Part shown: one piece after another, positions 45,828-50,953 of the stretch
Position numbering within the stretch: position 1 is the first letter of the stretch
Layout of the letters: each line of letters starts with the position of its first letter
NCBI RefSeq assembly: GCF_000744655.1
Contig: NZ_JQMJ01000004.1
Span: 496,001-560,000 of the forward strand
Length of the DNA stretch: 64,000 nt
Direction: 5' to 3'
From: Streptacidiphilus rugosus AM-16
GTDB taxonomy: Bacteria > Actinomycetota > Actinomycetes > Streptomycetales > Streptomycetaceae
Position numbers and translations under genes: made by a program
Notes under the pieces: generated by a model
Seen by the model: only the letters and a program-made list of their open reading frames with translations
What the model was told of the DNA's origin: nothing
The model's database searches: none

Positions 45828-46595
45828 ATGTACTCTCTGCAGTTCACCGCCGAGTCGTCGTCGAATGGCATGGTCGAGCGCGACTTCGTCGTGGGCGACG
45901 TCCCCGGCGTCCTCTGGTCGCCGGCCTCCAACGCAGCCGATCGCGCGCCCCTGATCCTGATGGCCCACGGCGGCGGCAACCACAAGAAGCACCCGGCGAT
46001 GTCCGGTCGCGCCCGCCTCCTCGTGGCTGGCTGCGGCTTCCACGTCGCCGTCATCGACGCGCCCGGTCACGGTGACCGGCCTCGCACGGCGCACGACGAG
46101 CAGGAGATCGCCGAGCTGTTCCGGGCGCGGGCCGCGGGCGAGCCGGAAGGCCCGATCGTCGTGCGCTACAACGACCACCTGGCGGAGTTGGCCGTGCCCG
46201 AGTACCAGGCGACCCTGGATGCTCTCCAGGGACTCCCGGAGATCGGCACCGACGGGTTGGTCGGCTTCTGGGGCATCAACATGGGCACCGCGATCGGCAT
46301 CCCATTCGTGGCCACCGAACCCAGGATCTCCGCCGCAGTCTTCGGCCAGCACTGGCCCGACACCCTGGCCGAGAAGGCGAAGCAGATCACCATCCCGATC
46401 GAGTTCGACCTGCAGTGGGACGACGAGCACATCTCGCGCGAGGCCGGTCTCGCGCTGTTCGACGCCTTCGCCTCGAAGGAGAAGTCGCTGCACGTGAACT
46501 CGGGCAAGCACAAGGAACTGCCCCGGTTCGAGGCCGACAGCGCGGTCCGGTTCTTCGCCCGGCACTTCGGCCGAGCAATCACCGCGTCGGCCTGA
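45828..46595 (+). CDS. Alpha/beta-hydrolase-fold protein with Asn at nucleophile position
   Basis: 255 residues. Dienelactone-hydrolase-like: LILMAHGGGNHKKHP (oxyanion loop), VAVIDAPGHGDR, elbow VGFWGINMGTAIG, Asp region EFDLQWDDEHIS and His in SGKHKELPRFE. The usual GxSxG elbow reads G-I-N-M-G: residue 151 is Asn (AAC at 46278-46280), where AGC would give Ser. So the enzyme may be inactive or altered. Start ATG after GAAAGG. Lies within the ends of an IS5-family unit, convergent with its transposase. Confidence 0.82.
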   Translation: MYSLQFTAESSSNGMVERDFVVGDVPGVLWSPASNAADRAPLILMAHGGGNHKKHPAMSGRARLLVAGCGFHVAVIDAPGHGDRPRTAHDEQEIAELFRARAAGEPEGPIVVRYNDHLAELAVPEYQATLDALQGLPEIGTDGLVGFWGINMGTAIGIPFVATEPRISAAVFGQHWPDTLAEKAKQITIPIEFDLQWDDEHISREAGLALFDAFASKEKSLHVNSGKHKELPRFEADSAVRFFARHFGRAITASA

Positions 46596-46935
46596 CGTAC
46601 CCGGTTGCGGCGTCCGGCTGGCAAGCCGGACGCCGCAACCGCGGCCCCGGGTTGAGGCTGCGCATCCAGATGATGGATCCGCGCAGTTGAAGCCCCGCCA
46701 TGTAGCTCTCGGGTGTCTTGTCATAGCGGGTTGCCAGACCCCGCCATGCCTTGATCTTGTTGATGCAGCGCTCCACCGTGTTGCGGTCCTTGTACTGGTC
46801 GGCGTCGTACGAGATCGGTCGCCCGCCGGCGCTGCCACGCTTCTGGCGGTTCGCTGCCTGGTCGGCCTTCTCCGGGATCACCGCCTTGATCCCGCGTCTG
46901 CGCAGGTAGGCCCGGTTGGCTCGCGACGAGTACGC
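46579..46935 (-). pseudogene. IS5-family transposase, C-terminal part
   Basis: Reads AYSSRANRAYLRRRGIKAVI from the junction at 46935, then EKADQAANRQKRG, NTVERCINKIKAWRGLATRY and GSIIWMRSL, the typical end of an IS427-group transposase with the catalytic Glu in TVERCIN. It continues exactly where the part at 48536 stops if the IS110 element is removed. Past MRSL the frame runs into the hydrolase terminator, so the native stop is lost. Confidence 0.85.
46603..46640. terminator. Hairpin terminator of the hydrolase gene
   Basis: A perfect 17-bp inverted repeat (46603-46619 and 46624-46640) with a 4-base loop, between the hydrolase stop and the transposase fragment. Confidence 0.8.
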
Positions 46936-46937
46936 CT

Positions 46938-47271
46938 AATAGGCGCCGAGGTTGAGTTCTTGGCGACCTCGGCAGGGGCCGTCAACGTCTGGACTGTATG
47001 CCGCGCCTTGAGCGCTTCGATAAGAGCGATGCCTGCACGGCCCCTGCCGCTTCCAACTCGATCGCCGTACCGTGCCGTGGTTCGAGCCATGTCCAGGGTC
47101 ATCTCTTGATCAGCCGGAGCCGTCGAGCTCTTCACGAGAGCGAGGCCCCTGGACTCAGCTGGGACCACGGACGGCTGATGGGGTGGTGCGCCCGCGAGCG
47201 CTTCTATTAGGTCGCCGGGTGGTCCTGCCGCGGCTCGACGCCGACGGGACAGCGACGGCAAAGGAGCGAAT
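46938..47271 (+). ncRNA. Candidate IS110 bridge RNA locus
   Basis: Non-coding left end. Target-loop candidate: CGCCT at 47004-47008 equals the five bases of the left target through the CT core, and CGATAAG at 47018-47024 is the exact complement of the right target CTTATCG. Donor-loop candidate: ATGGGGTG at 47178-47185 repeats the element's own right end (48525-48532), and CTATTAG at 47204-47210 is the exact complement of its left end CTAATAG. Both loops appear in the order target then donor, as known for IS621. Confidence 0.7.
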
Positions 47272-48513
47272 GTGCAGGTGACCTGCGGAATCGACTGGGC
47301 CGAGGACCACCATGACGTGGCGGTGGTCGACTCTGAAGCGCGGCTGCTCGGCAAGCTGCGGATCAGCGACGACGCTGCCGGCTTCCAAGAACTCCTGCAT
47401 CTGCTCGCCGAGCACGGCGACAGTCCCGACGAACCGATCCCGGTCGCCATCGAGACCTCCCGCGGCCTGCTCGTCGCCTGCCTGAGGGCGACAGGCCGCC
47501 GCGTCTACGCGATCAACCCGATGGCCGTCGCCCGATACCGCGACCGGCACACGGTCTCACGCAAGAAGTCCGACCACCAGGACGCTCTCGTCCTGGCGAA
47601 CATCCTGCGCACCGACGCGGAGCACCACCGCCCGCTGCCGGGCGATTCCGACCTCGTCAGAGCCATCGCCGTGCTGGCCAGGGCCCAGCAGGACGCTGTC
47701 TGGGACCGCACTCGCGCTCAGAACCGGCTGCGGTCGCACCTGCGCGAGTACTACCCCTCGATCCTGGAGGCCTTCTCGGATCGGCGCGAACACCTGCTGG
47801 CCCGGGAGGCCCGCGCGATCCTCGCGATCGCCCCGACTCCGACCGAGGCGGCCGCGCTCACTCGCAGCCGGCTGAAGGCCGCCGTCGTGCGAGCAGGCCG
47901 CCAGCGCAGGATCGAGGCGGAGACCGACCGGATCCGGGAGATCCTCCGTCGCGCCTGGATGCACCAACCGCCACTAGTGGAAACGGCGATGGGGCACCAG
48001 ACTCTCGCCCTCCTGGCCCAGCTCAACGCCGCCTGCCAAGCCTGTGACGACCTGGCCCAAGCCACTGAAGAGCTGTTCCTGCAGCACCCGGACGCCGAGA
48101 TCATCACCAGCTTCCCCGGTCTGGCGGTCCTCACCGGCGCCCGGATCCTGGCCGAGATCGGCGACGACCGAACCCGATTCGACACCGCACGGAACCTGAA
48201 GGCCTACGCCGGAAGCGCACCAGTGACGCGGGAGTCCGGCCGCAGCCGCCAGGTGAACCACCGCCGCATCAAGAACAGCCGCCTGGCCGCAACCGGACGA
48301 CACTGGGCATTCGCCGCTCTCACCGCGTCACCCGGGGCCCACGCCCACTACAACCGCCGACGCGACGCGGGTGACCGCTACCACGCAGCCCTCCGTCATC
48401 TCTTCAACCGCATGCTCGGCCAACTGCACCACTGCCTGAACACTCACCAGAAATTCGACGAGGGGATCGCCTTCGCAACACCAGCGAGGCCTGAACTCAG
48501 CGCCGCAGCTTGA
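47272..48513 (+). CDS. IS110-family DEDD recombinase/transposase
   Basis: 413 residues from GTG 47272 (AAGGAG six bases upstream). N-terminal RuvC-like DEDD domain: D8 in CGIDWAEDHHD, E61 in VAIETSRG, D101 and D104 in KKSDHQDA. C-terminal Tnp_20 domain with ITSFPGLAVLTGARILAEIG, LKAYAGSAPVTRESGRSRQV, where a Ser supplies the nucleophile in this family. Length and motifs are intact. It recombines element and target DNA guided by the bridge RNA. Confidence 0.94.
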   Translation: MQVTCGIDWAEDHHDVAVVDSEARLLGKLRISDDAAGFQELLHLLAEHGDSPDEPIPVAIETSRGLLVACLRATGRRVYAINPMAVARYRDRHTVSRKKSDHQDALVLANILRTDAEHHRPLPGDSDLVRAIAVLARAQQDAVWDRTRAQNRLRSHLREYYPSILEAFSDRREHLLAREARAILAIAPTPTEAAALTRSRLKAAVVRAGRQRRIEAETDRIREILRRAWMHQPPLVETAMGHQTLALLAQLNAACQACDDLAQATEELFLQHPDAEIITSFPGLAVLTGARILAEIGDDRTRFDTARNLKAYAGSAPVTRESGRSRQVNHRRIKNSRLAATGRHWAFAALTASPGAHAHYNRRRDAGDRYHAALRHLFNRMLGQLHHCLNTHQKFDEGIAFATPARPELSAAA

Positions 48514-48535
48514 CCCATAGCTGCATGGGGTGTCT

Positions 48536-49234
48536 TATCGGCGGCCACCGCGTCGGGCCTGGTCCGCGGACGGCCGACGGGCCCGCGCACCTTGACCTCC
48601 TCCAGGACGGCGACGAACCGTGGGCTGTCAGCGGCCTGTCCGGGCGTGAGCACGAAGGCCAAGGGGCGACAACGCCGGTCCGCCGCAAGATGCACCTTGC
48701 TGGTCAGCCCACCACGGGACCGGCCGAGCGCCGCTGCCTTGAGTCGGGCACGGCGACGCCGGCGTAACTTCCGGCGTTCGGCCCGATCCCTCTCGAGCTC
48801 TGCCGATGCCGCCGTCACCGGGGCGTTTTGCCCGGTTTCCGATGCCCCTTTTCCTCCGCCGCGGCCTCTTCCAGCGCCGCCAGCACCTCGGGGTCGACCA
48901 CCATCCCCGCCGCATCGTGGTGTGCGCGAGCCACTGTCGAATCCACGCTGACCAGCGACAGGTCCGCCTGACCGCGCCGGGCGGCCTCCGCGATGATCGC
49001 CTTCATCAGCGCGGCGAACACACCCGCGTCACGCCACTGGGCGAAGCGGTCGTAGACCGTCTGCCAGGCACCGAACTCCGTCGGCATCTCCCGCCACTGG
49101 CCACCGCTGCGGAACTTCCAGATGACGCCCTCGAACTGCTCACGAAGCCGCTGCGGATACGGGCCGTACCGGCCGATGGGGAGGAACGGCTCGACCAACT
49201 CCCACTCGCTGTCGCTCAGTTCGCGTCGCGTCAC
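48536..49234 (-). pseudogene. IS5-family transposase, N-terminal part (two frames)
   Basis: First frame (GTG 49234 to stop at 48815) begins TRRELSDSEWELVEPFLP and contains VSVDSTVARAHHDAAGM (first catalytic Asp). Second frame starts GTG 48818 overlapping that stop, with LGRSRGGLTSKVHLAADRRC and PDAVAADK (second Asp region), ending at the IS110 junction. The A-rich GGGCAAAACG stretch before the first stop could allow the programmed frameshift used in the IS427 group. Broken by the IS110 insertion, so inactive. Confidence 0.85.
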
Positions 49235-49285
49235 AGCAGCGTTTTACCGGCCCAGCCCGGCGCGCGAGGGCGAACCGGGCAAGAC

Positions 49286-49307
49286 TGATCACAACTCCAG
49301 ACAGAGC
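49286..49307 (-). repeat. Right inverted end of the IS5-family unit
   Basis: Read on the minus strand it begins GCTCTGTCTGGAGTTGTGAT, matching the left end at 45611. CTAG follows at 49308-49311. Confidence 0.75.
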
Positions 49308-49311
49308 CTAG

Positions 49312-50894
49312 TACTCCAGCAGGACTTTGCTATCTGACCTGGGGCGATGCAGGCGGAGTGGAGTGTAGTCAGGGTGCCAGGCGTCAGGGGCGGCTTCGTG
49401 TGGGCTGCCCCTCGATCGTGTGACTGCGCCGTCGGTAGTGGCTGCGGCGGGGCAGCCTCTCGATGTGATCACCGAGACCGTCGCCGAGACGTGGGACCGC
49501 GAACTGGACGAACTCTTCTTGACCGTGGGACACCGCTTCCGTCGCGTCGAAGCGCGGCGCCGGATGCGGGACTACGTGCGCGGCCTGCTGGCTCCAGTCG
49601 CCAGGAAGAACAGCTGGCAGCTGGCCGAGCAGGCCGGTCACCGCACCCCCGACGGCTTGCAGCATCTGCTCGCCGGGGCCGCGTGGGACCCGGACGAGAT
49701 CCGCGATGACCTGCAGGCATTTGTCGCCGAGCGGTTGGGCGAGCCTGACGGGGTACTGATCCTCGACGACACCGGCTTCGTGAAGAAGGGCACCACCTCC
49801 GCCGGGGTGCAGCGCCAGTACTCCGGCACCGCCGGCCGGACCGAGAACTGCCAGATCGGAGTGTTCGCCGCCTATGCCTCCGTCCGGGGCCGGGCCCTGG
49901 TCGACCGTGAGCTCTACCTGCCCAAGTCATGGACCGAAGACCGCGATCGCTGCCGTGCGGCGAGGATCCCCGACGAGCGGGAGTTCTGCACCTAGGGCGA
50001 GCTGGCGAAGCGGCTGGTGCTGCGGGCGCTGGGCTCCGATCTGCCCATCGCCTGGGTCACCGCGGACTCGGCCTATGGGCAGTAGGGACGCTTCCGCCGG
50101 CTGCTGGAGGAATCCGGTGTCGGCTACGTCCTGGCGGTGCCCAAGTCCCAGTTCAGCCTGGGCGGTCCCCGCATCGACTGGCTGTTCGCGCAGGCCCCGG
50201 ACGAGGCCTGGGAGCGGATGTCGTGCGGTGACGGCGCCAAGGGCCCGCGCGTCTACGACTGGGCGGCGATCCGGCTGCGGGCCGTGGCGGAGTACGACTA
50301 CCAGGGCGAGGTCCTGGTCCGAGCACGCTGGGCGATGGCCCGCCGCAGCATCGCCAAGCCGGACGAGATCGCCTACTACCTCGCCTACGCGCCGCCGGAG
50401 ACCACCGTGACGGAGTTGGTGCGGATCGCGGGGATGCGGAGGGCGATCGAGGAGTGCTTCCAGGCCGCGAAGAACGAATGCGGTCTGGATCAGTACGAAG
50501 TCCGCCGTTACACCGGCTGGATGCGGCACATCACGCTCGCCATGCTCGCGCACGCGTTCTTGGCCGCGATGGCGGCCGCCGCGGCGTCAAAAGGGGCTGC
50601 AGAAACGGTTCCGGCACCCTGGTCGACCTCACCGTGGCGGAGATCCGCAGGCTCCTGGCAGTTGGCGGCGGCGGTGGCCCGTGTCCGCCACGGCGCTCGC
50701 CCCGCACTCACGCGCTGAGCTGGTCCGCCTGGCGTCGACGACGCCAGGCCGTCGCCCGCCGCAGCCACTACCGACGGCGCAGTCACACGATCGAGGGGCA
50801 GCCCACACGAAGCCGCCCCTGACGCCTGGCACCCTGACTACACTCCACTCCGCCTGCATCGCCCCAGGTCAGATAGCAAAGTCCTGCTGGAGTA
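49312..50894 (+). mobile_element. IS701-family element, 1583 bp, decayed
   Basis: Flanked by CTAG on both sides (49308-49311 and 50895-50898), the target duplication known for IS701. The ends are inverted repeats about 138 bp long (49312-49449 and 50757-50894), unusually long and nearly identical. The left CTAG also is the right flank of the IS5 unit, so it inserted there afterwards. Transposase is broken. Confidence 0.85.
49420..50822 (+). pseudogene. IS701-family transposase, two amber stops and a frameshift
   Basis: DDE transposase text is continuous in one frame from GTG 49420: LILDDTGFVKKGT (first Asp), IAWVTADSAYG (second Asp), and IEECFQAAKNECGLDQYEVR (Glu). In-frame TAG codons stand at 49993-49995 and 50083-50085, each one base from a sense codon (AAG or GAG). 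Near 50580-50620 the frame shifts: the expected LVDLTVAEIRRLLA continues in another frame to 50822. Inactive unless the stops are read through. Confidence 0.88.
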
Positions 50895-50953
50895 CTAGTT
50901 CGCATCGAGGGGGTCAGTGTCCTTGGCGGGCCGAACCGATGCCCGCTGGCGAC

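What the first reader, a model, noticed from the sequence alone, without database searches (positions are those of the whole stretch)
46938..47271. Readable bridge RNA in an IS110-family element: both target and donor guides match
Seen: insertion site resolved to the base by restoring the IS5 transposase. In the non-coding left end, CGATAAG (47018) complements the right target, CGCCT (47004) repeats the left target through the CT core, CTATTAG (47204) complements the element's own left end, and ATGGGGTG (47178) repeats its right end. Known: IS110 group elements use a bridge RNA with separate target and donor loops flanking a CT core. This copy therefore still records the guide that chose its site and looks intact.
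Basis: partly seen in the sequence, partly recalled or inferred. Interest (0 to 1): 0.85.

Follow-up and report, generated by a model that had tools for sequence, protein, structure and literature searches.

The report
RNA-guided transposon aimed at other transposons
A bacterial jumping gene carries an RNA guide that matches its landing site inside the enzyme gene of another jumping gene, and some of its relatives carry several such guides in a row and have landed with different ones.

Summary
The finding holds with one correction. Window 46938-48535 is a full-length IS110-group element whose left non-coding end reads as a bridge RNA. The left target guide is not CGCCT (47004), which lies in a hairpin, but TGTATGCC (46995-47002). 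Three uninterrupted copies of the same IS5 in this genome confirm the site. Close relatives have guide CGACAAG and a GAC site; only the window has CGATAAG and a GAT site.

Two things go beyond the finding. (1) The target spells D-K-A-Y of IS5-type transposases. All 20 copies of this lineage with a readable junction sit in this motif (one of them a base off), as do six divergent elements with other loops. At least 31 of 59 relatives lie in other transposases (IS5, IS110, IS256). (2) Some relatives carry two to four target loops in tandem. In 13 of 14 exactly one loop fits the insertion site, sometimes the first, sometimes a later one. Two Trebonia kvetii copies, one base apart in 1848, sit at two sites, each fitted by a different loop. 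I found neither point in the papers searched. RNA expression and activity are inferred.

The parts
46925..46937 (.). Left target and CT core (GACGAGTACGC-CT)
   Evidence: Uninterrupted in three other IS5 copies of this genome
46936..46942 (+). Left end CTAATAG, complement of the right donor guide; CTAAT is also the -10 part of the circle-junction promoter
46970..47050 (+). Target hairpin of the bridge RNA
   Evidence: Fold z -3.78, 0 of 200 shuffles as good; closing stem kept in 12 aligned copies, one pair with changes on both sides
46995..47002 (+).
   Evidence: Fits AGTACGCC with one mismatch and one G-U; exact in L004 and L022 over the 7 bases next to the core
47003..47015 (+).
47017..47024 (+). 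Right target guide TCGATAAG
   Evidence: Complement of CTTATCG plus a G-U; C at this place in the close relatives, with a GAC site
47091..47154 (+). Middle loop, same architecture as a target loop, role unknown
   Evidence: Found in 41 of 59 elements; does not fit insertion sites
47163..47225 (+). Donor hairpin
   Evidence: Conserved in 40 aligned elements; isolated fold not better than shuffles
47178..47185 (+). Left donor guide ATGGGGTG
   Evidence: Repeats 48525-48532
47204..47210 (+). Right donor guide CTATTAG
   Evidence: Complement of 46936-46942; seven guide variants follow the left end in relatives
47272..48513 (+). IS110 recombinase, 413 aa, D8 E61 D101 D104 S322
   Evidence: PF01548, PF02371; alignment of 15; profile match to IS621 and ISCro4
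48510..48515 (+). TTGACC, -35-like half of the promoter that forms only when the ends are joined
   Evidence: TTGACN at 17-18 nt in 59 of 59 elements
48525..48535 (+). Right end ATGGGGTGT with CT core
48536..49234 (-). N-terminal part of the interrupted IS5 transposase (two frames)
   Evidence: PF13340, NF033580 to position 177
46579..46935 (-). C-terminal part of the interrupted IS5 transposase
   Evidence: NF033580 from position 179

Best explanation
46938-48535 is an intact-looking IS110-group element with a bridge RNA. In the excised circle the joined ends make a sigma70-like promoter that transcribes the left end. The RNA folds a target hairpin and a donor hairpin. TGTATGCC and TCGATAAG read the two strands of the site around CT; ATGGGGTG and CTATTAG read the joined ends; the DEDD/Ser recombinase exchanges strands at CT. 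The target guide is written against the codons for D-K-A-Y of IS5-type transposases, a motif that recurs in many copies and many different elements, so one guide finds many landing places. Relatives extend the scheme with tandem target hairpins: each carries its own guide pair and can be used on its own, which gives one element a choice of targets. Shown by sequence: anatomy, guide/site agreement and its covariation, the promoter motif, the D-K-A/G reading, and the use of different loops. Inferred: transcription, RNA processing, catalysis, and why transposase motifs are favoured.
For: Guide and site agree and change together: 32 of 52 own pairings against 23 of 2605 foreign ones reach 13 of 16; seven donor-guide variants follow the left end. 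Empty site in three IS5 copies. Recombinase motifs. Promoter motif in 59 of 59, controls 10, 6, 0 and 3 of 59. D-K-A/G reading in 19 both-junction elements plus L025, flanks of transposase families only. Tandem loops: 13 of 14 fitted by exactly one loop; Trebonia pair.
Against: 20 of 52 own pairings stay below 13; the L029-like group scores only 10-12; 7 of 59 elements gave no loop in the blind finder. The donor hairpin alone does not fold better than shuffles. Only one pair with changes on both sides among 91 in the close alignment, which is too uniform to test structure. L005 has GT instead of CT at its left core, L024 fits on one side only, L116 is one base off. No RNA or activity data.
Confidence: 0.88

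Rival explanations
1. The left target guide is the reader's CGCCT at 47004, and the upstream TGTATGCC is incidental.
For: CGCCT is an exact 5-base repeat of the left target through the core, while TGTATGCC has one mismatch and one G-U.
Against: CGCCT lies in the small hairpin. In relatives with other sites the segment 5' of that hairpin is the one that follows the site, e.g. L021, L032, L036, L054, L055 with 7-8 matching bases. A given 5-mer is expected 0.3 times in this region by chance.
Confidence: 0.04
2. Guides are copied from the flank after insertion instead of choosing the site.
For: The window guide differs from its relatives by exactly the base found in its site.
Against: Close copies keep the same left guide while the third base of the Ala codon in their sites varies; the window guide keeps its mismatch; unused loops of L013, L024 and L053 fit sites where other elements sit, not their own flanks.
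Confidence: 0.04
3. Extra target-type loops in relatives are remnants or chance hairpins, not usable guides.
For: Some extra loops fit no known site; the loops at 103 and 166 of the Trebonia element have no known site, and the middle loop, which looks alike, never fits.
Against: Two nearly identical Trebonia copies fit the first and the last candidate loop. The unused loop of L013 fits the D-K-A-Y site of L010 at 15.5 of 16, that of L024 fits L021 at 15, that of L053 fits L065 at 13.
Confidence: 0.12
4. The excess in transposases only reflects that transposases are abundant, repeated and harmless to hit.
For: Insertions in host genes would be selected against; one relative (L033) does sit in a dehydrogenase gene. 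27 of 59 sites were not assigned to transposases.
Against: The sites fall at the same codons of the same motifs and the guides are written against those codons. This rival may still be the reason why such guides were kept.
Confidence: 0.15

Closest known systems
IS621 and IS110-family bridge RNAs (PMC11208160, PMC11208158; passages read)
   Same: DEDD/Ser recombinase, left-end non-coding RNA, target and donor loops each with a left and a right guide, CT core, promoter made by the joined ends.
   Different: IS621 goes to REP elements and is described with one target and one donor loop. Here the site is a transposase motif, a middle loop lies between target and donor loops, and relatives have two to four target loops.
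seekRNA of ISEc21 and IS1111 elements (PMC11187229; passages read)
   Same: RNA from the non-coding region guides insertion; natural reprogramming between relatives was seen there too; non-coding region upstream as in its IS110 group.
   Different: Target recognition only was described there in the passages I read; no transposase-motif targets or tandem loops in those passages.
IS elements that insert into REP sequences (PMC1525189; search listing only)
   Same: Target is itself a repeated, mobile-related sequence.
   Different: REPs are non-coding; here the target is a protein-coding motif shared by different transposases.

Membership tests
IS110 group (bridge-RNA elements) | RuvC-like DEDD domain and Tnp domain with catalytic Ser-Gly | tested here: met
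   PF01548 and PF02371; D8, E61, D101, D104, S322, G323 invariant in 15; profile match to IS621, Ser-Gly aligned; E61 by motif only
IS110 group (bridge-RNA elements) | Long non-coding region upstream of the recombinase gene | tested here: met
   334 bases before 47272, 22 bases after the stop codon
IS110 group (bridge-RNA elements) | Target loop whose two guides fit the insertion site | tested here: met
   13 of 16; 65 of 200000 random flanks; relatives
IS110 group (bridge-RNA elements) | Donor loop whose two guides fit the joined ends | tested here: met
   fold of the isolated hairpin not significant
IS110 group (bridge-RNA elements) | CT core shared by site and circle, insertion without other duplication | tested here: met
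IS110 group (bridge-RNA elements) | Promoter formed by the joined ends | tested here: met
   By sequence only, 59 of 59
IS110 group (bridge-RNA elements) | RNA bound by recombinase; RNA-dependent recombination | not testable with these tools
   Needs experiment
IS1111 group | Long non-coding region downstream of the recombinase gene | tested here: not met
   Only 22 bases between stop codon and right end
IS1111 group | Subterminal inverted repeats of 11-13 bases | not tested
   No repeat search was run on the element ends

The most novel reading that the evidence does not exclude
A clade of actinobacterial IS110 elements preys on other transposons: its bridge RNAs are written against codons of conserved transposase motifs, and some carry arrays of two to four interchangeable target hairpins, a natural multi-guide bridge RNA in which each hairpin can be used on its own with the single donor hairpin.
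Probability: 0.75. Interest if true: 0.87.

Novelty: new variant of a known kind. Interest (0 to 1): 0.75.

Why it matters
The window element alone is a new member of a known kind. The surprise is what its clade does with the mechanism. A guide written against conserved transposase codons makes a parasite of parasites: a hit breaks another transposon, probably spares the host, and the same guide serves in different transposons. Tandem target hairpins would mean that evolution already multiplexes bridge RNAs, which bears on how target and donor modules cooperate and on programmable recombination tools. The 59 elements with both junctions read make guide rules testable from sequence.

Tried and rejected
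The middle loop as a second target loop: mean score 8.8 against the own site and 8.3 against others, 0 of 2378 foreign pairings at 13 or more, own maximum 12 with 3 of 41 at 12. Rfam: four matches up to E 1 in 46500-49400, all below their gathering scores. Phage records: no match. One viral contig with a 42% relative was not used. A single-sequence AlphaFold model of the second IS5 reading frame of L165 had mean pLDDT 41 and was discarded; that the D of D-K-A-Y is the second catalytic Asp therefore rests on recalled knowledge of IS5/IS4 transposases. PMC2266710 (passages) says only that the second Asp lies in a region called N3. phmmer against the PDB found nothing; the profile did. A pattern search for the loop-4 site in the Trebonia genome gave nine hits with one mismatch against 0 in the reversed control, none exact; what lies there was not examined.

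Rows dropped before counts: 78 elements went into the end finder, namely the window, 73 of the 80 loci and 4 of the 5 plasmid loci (L136 left out); 73 of 78 gave a right donor guide and 57 both ends. L025 and L026, whose left end lay beyond the search range, were added by hand, 59 in all. L056, L058, L067, L074 and L079-L081 were not put in. L105-L107 have the same junctions as L003, L002 and L004 and were not counted. In one search loops were added by hand: L055 at 75 and L025/L026 at 103, which the first finder had listed, and L065 at 148, which I located with its own site, so it is not blind. L178, L185 and L210 look like further tandem-loop elements; they were read by eye and are not in the counts.

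Full report
What is there. The window (a 9.0 Mb genome; 14 genomes of its genus are held, own included; relatives lie in Streptomyces, Kitasatospora and other actinobacteria) carries an IS110-group element at 46938-48535. Its 413-aa recombinase (47272-48513) matches PF01548 and PF02371, keeps D8, E61, D101, D104 and S322-G323, invariant in 15 aligned relatives, and by profile matches solved IS621 and ISCro4. It interrupts an IS5-type transposase on the minus strand: NCBIfam NF033580 runs to position 177 on one side and from 179 on the other. The genome holds one full copy, and one 70% relative of the recombinase gene elsewhere. Three other copies of the same IS5, 92-93% identical, show the uninterrupted site.

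The bridge RNA. The left donor guide ATGGGGTG and the right donor guide CTATTAG fit the right and left ends exactly; the right target guide TCGATAAG fits CTTATCG plus a G-U. The left target guide is TGTATGCC at 46995-47002, not CGCCT: CGCCT lies in the small hairpin that separates the two guides, and in relatives the segment 5' of this hairpin is the one that follows the site. The target hairpin folds strongly (z -3.78); the isolated donor hairpin does not exceed shuffles (z -0.83).

Test on relatives. Elements were collected by similarity of the recombinase or of the whole element, not by target. Of 78 put into the end finder 57 gave both ends; with the two Trebonia copies 59 are used below. 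Where the left end was sought only as CTAAT, seven variants of the right donor guide (CTATTAG, CCATTAG, GGATTAG, GAATTAG, CGATTAG, TCATTAG, TGATTAG) each came with the matching end; the later end finder allowed one mismatch, so agreement there is partly by selection. A loop finder that does not see the site found one or more target loops in 52 of 59 (missed: L022, L032, L039, L047, L061, L063, L068). Over 16 positions with G-U counted half, 32 of 52 reached 13 against their own site, against 23 of 2605 foreign pairings. Some high foreign pairings are themselves meaningful, such as the unused loop of L013 with D-K-A-Y sites. Against the reading: 20 of 52 stay below 13, and the L029-like group scores only 10-12.

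One base. Among the 20 both-junction elements at D-K-A/G (19 plus L025), 18 have guide GACAAG and site codon GAC; the window has GATAAG and GAT; L047 has GATAAG and GAC, a G-U wobble. The 13 close relatives are all in the first class, and so is a left-end fragment in a congener that is 96% identical to the window (L088, guide only). The three uninterrupted IS5 copies in this genome have GAT. So the change in the window fits the resident IS5; since U can also pair with G, it widens the target rather than switching it.

What the target means. Read on the minus strand the site is GAY-AAG-GCN-TAY, D-K-A-Y. Fourteen lineage copies have both junctions there. Six more have readable junctions (L115 and L168 both; L058 and L136 right only; L108 and L116 left only). 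All 20 lie in the motif; L116 is one base off in register and reads G-Y-S-S-R. Divergent elements with other loops also sit at D-K-A/G: L014, L022, L028, L047, L061 and L025 (L061 has Cys for Tyr). The 37 flank pieces of the 19 both-junction elements, window included, matched only DDE-transposase families: NCBIfam IS5_3 25, IS5_2 6, IS5_4 4, IS1182 3, IS5_1 1 pieces; a piece can match several or none, and the two pieces of L007 matched none. That this D is the second catalytic Asp is recalled, not tested. Other loops aim at other transposase motifs: G-K-K-I-N-G just before a D-T-L-G block of IS5 (L015, L017, L021, L023, L027, with small variations), two further IS5 sites (L055, L065), a site next to an S-M-P-G motif of other IS110 recombinases (L013, L031, L137), and the C-terminal end of an IS256 transposase (L026). 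That is 31 of 59; L063 and half of L024 are likely but not counted. L033 lies in a dehydrogenase gene; the other 27, L063 and L024 among them, were not assigned.

Tandem target loops. Fourteen elements have two or more target loops (additions by hand are told in Tried and rejected). In 13 of 14 exactly one loop reaches 13: the first in L013, L031, L033, L051, L053, L137 and L025; a later one in L021, L023, L043, L055, L065 and L026; L024 fits none, as only its right flank agrees. The cleanest case is Trebonia kvetii: two copies that differ by one base in 1848, in the recombinase gene, with four candidate loops. L025 sits in CTGGTACCC-CT-TGTCCGC, fitted by the first loop (15 of 16; the last scores 9). 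L026 sits in CGACATCAC-CT-TCGACGG, fitted by the last loop (15.5; the first scores 9). L055 and L178 share much of a left guide but differ in the right guide, and their right targets differ in the same direction (read by eye; L178 fits 6 of 8 on the right).

Expression. In the circle the joined ends give TTGACC-17-TCTAAT. TTGACN at 17-18 nt from it is present in 59 of 59 elements; at four control spacings 10, 6, 0 and 3 of 59 have a hexamer within two mismatches of TTGACA. The TCTAAT part is partly by selection, as ends were sought with TAAT. The RNA is thus probably made from the excised form, as described for IS110 elements (PMC11208160, passages).

Prior work. Bridge RNAs and seekRNAs are established (PMC11208160, PMC11208158, PMC11187229; passages only). 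The terms 'two target', 'multiple target', 'additional loop', 'second target' and 'third loop' do not occur in the main text of PMC11208160. Library searches listed nothing on tandem target loops or on guides for transposase motifs, judged by titles and abstract starts; preprints and most subscription papers are not held and supplements could not be read, so this is weak evidence of novelty.

Verdict. The element is a new member of a known kind; its clade, by aim and by guide arrays, is a new variant.

Noticed in passing
window 49308-50898: An IS701-family transposase in two frames (49420-49995, 50137-50718) between perfect inverted repeats of 144 bases (49308-49451 and 50755-50898), which seem long for such an element (recalled).
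   Followed up: partly
window 47091-47154 and the matching place in relatives: A middle loop with the architecture of a target loop and variable guide-like bases, found in 41 of 59 elements, fits no insertion site. Role unknown.
   Followed up: partly
L025/L026, offsets 103 and 166 from the left core: Two further candidate target loops of the Trebonia element with no known insertion site.
   Followed up: no
L115 (reverse strand, about 255 bases from 1463): An internally deleted derivative: left end with target hairpin joined to the right end, no donor loop and nearly no recombinase gene, sitting on a D-K-A-Y site.
   Followed up: partly
L168: A copy of the window's lineage, on its usual target, split by about 1.7 kb of other DNA near the start of the recombinase gene.
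   Followed up: no
L005 left junction: Left core is GT while the right one is CT.
   Followed up: no
L022 recombinase gene: The recombinase reading of this D-K-G-Y copy contains a stop codon in the span tried.
   Followed up: no
L169 region and L141-L152 (Trebonia genome): Six places with a second, 65-68% related IS110-type element in the same genome; their target loops were not read.
   Followed up: no
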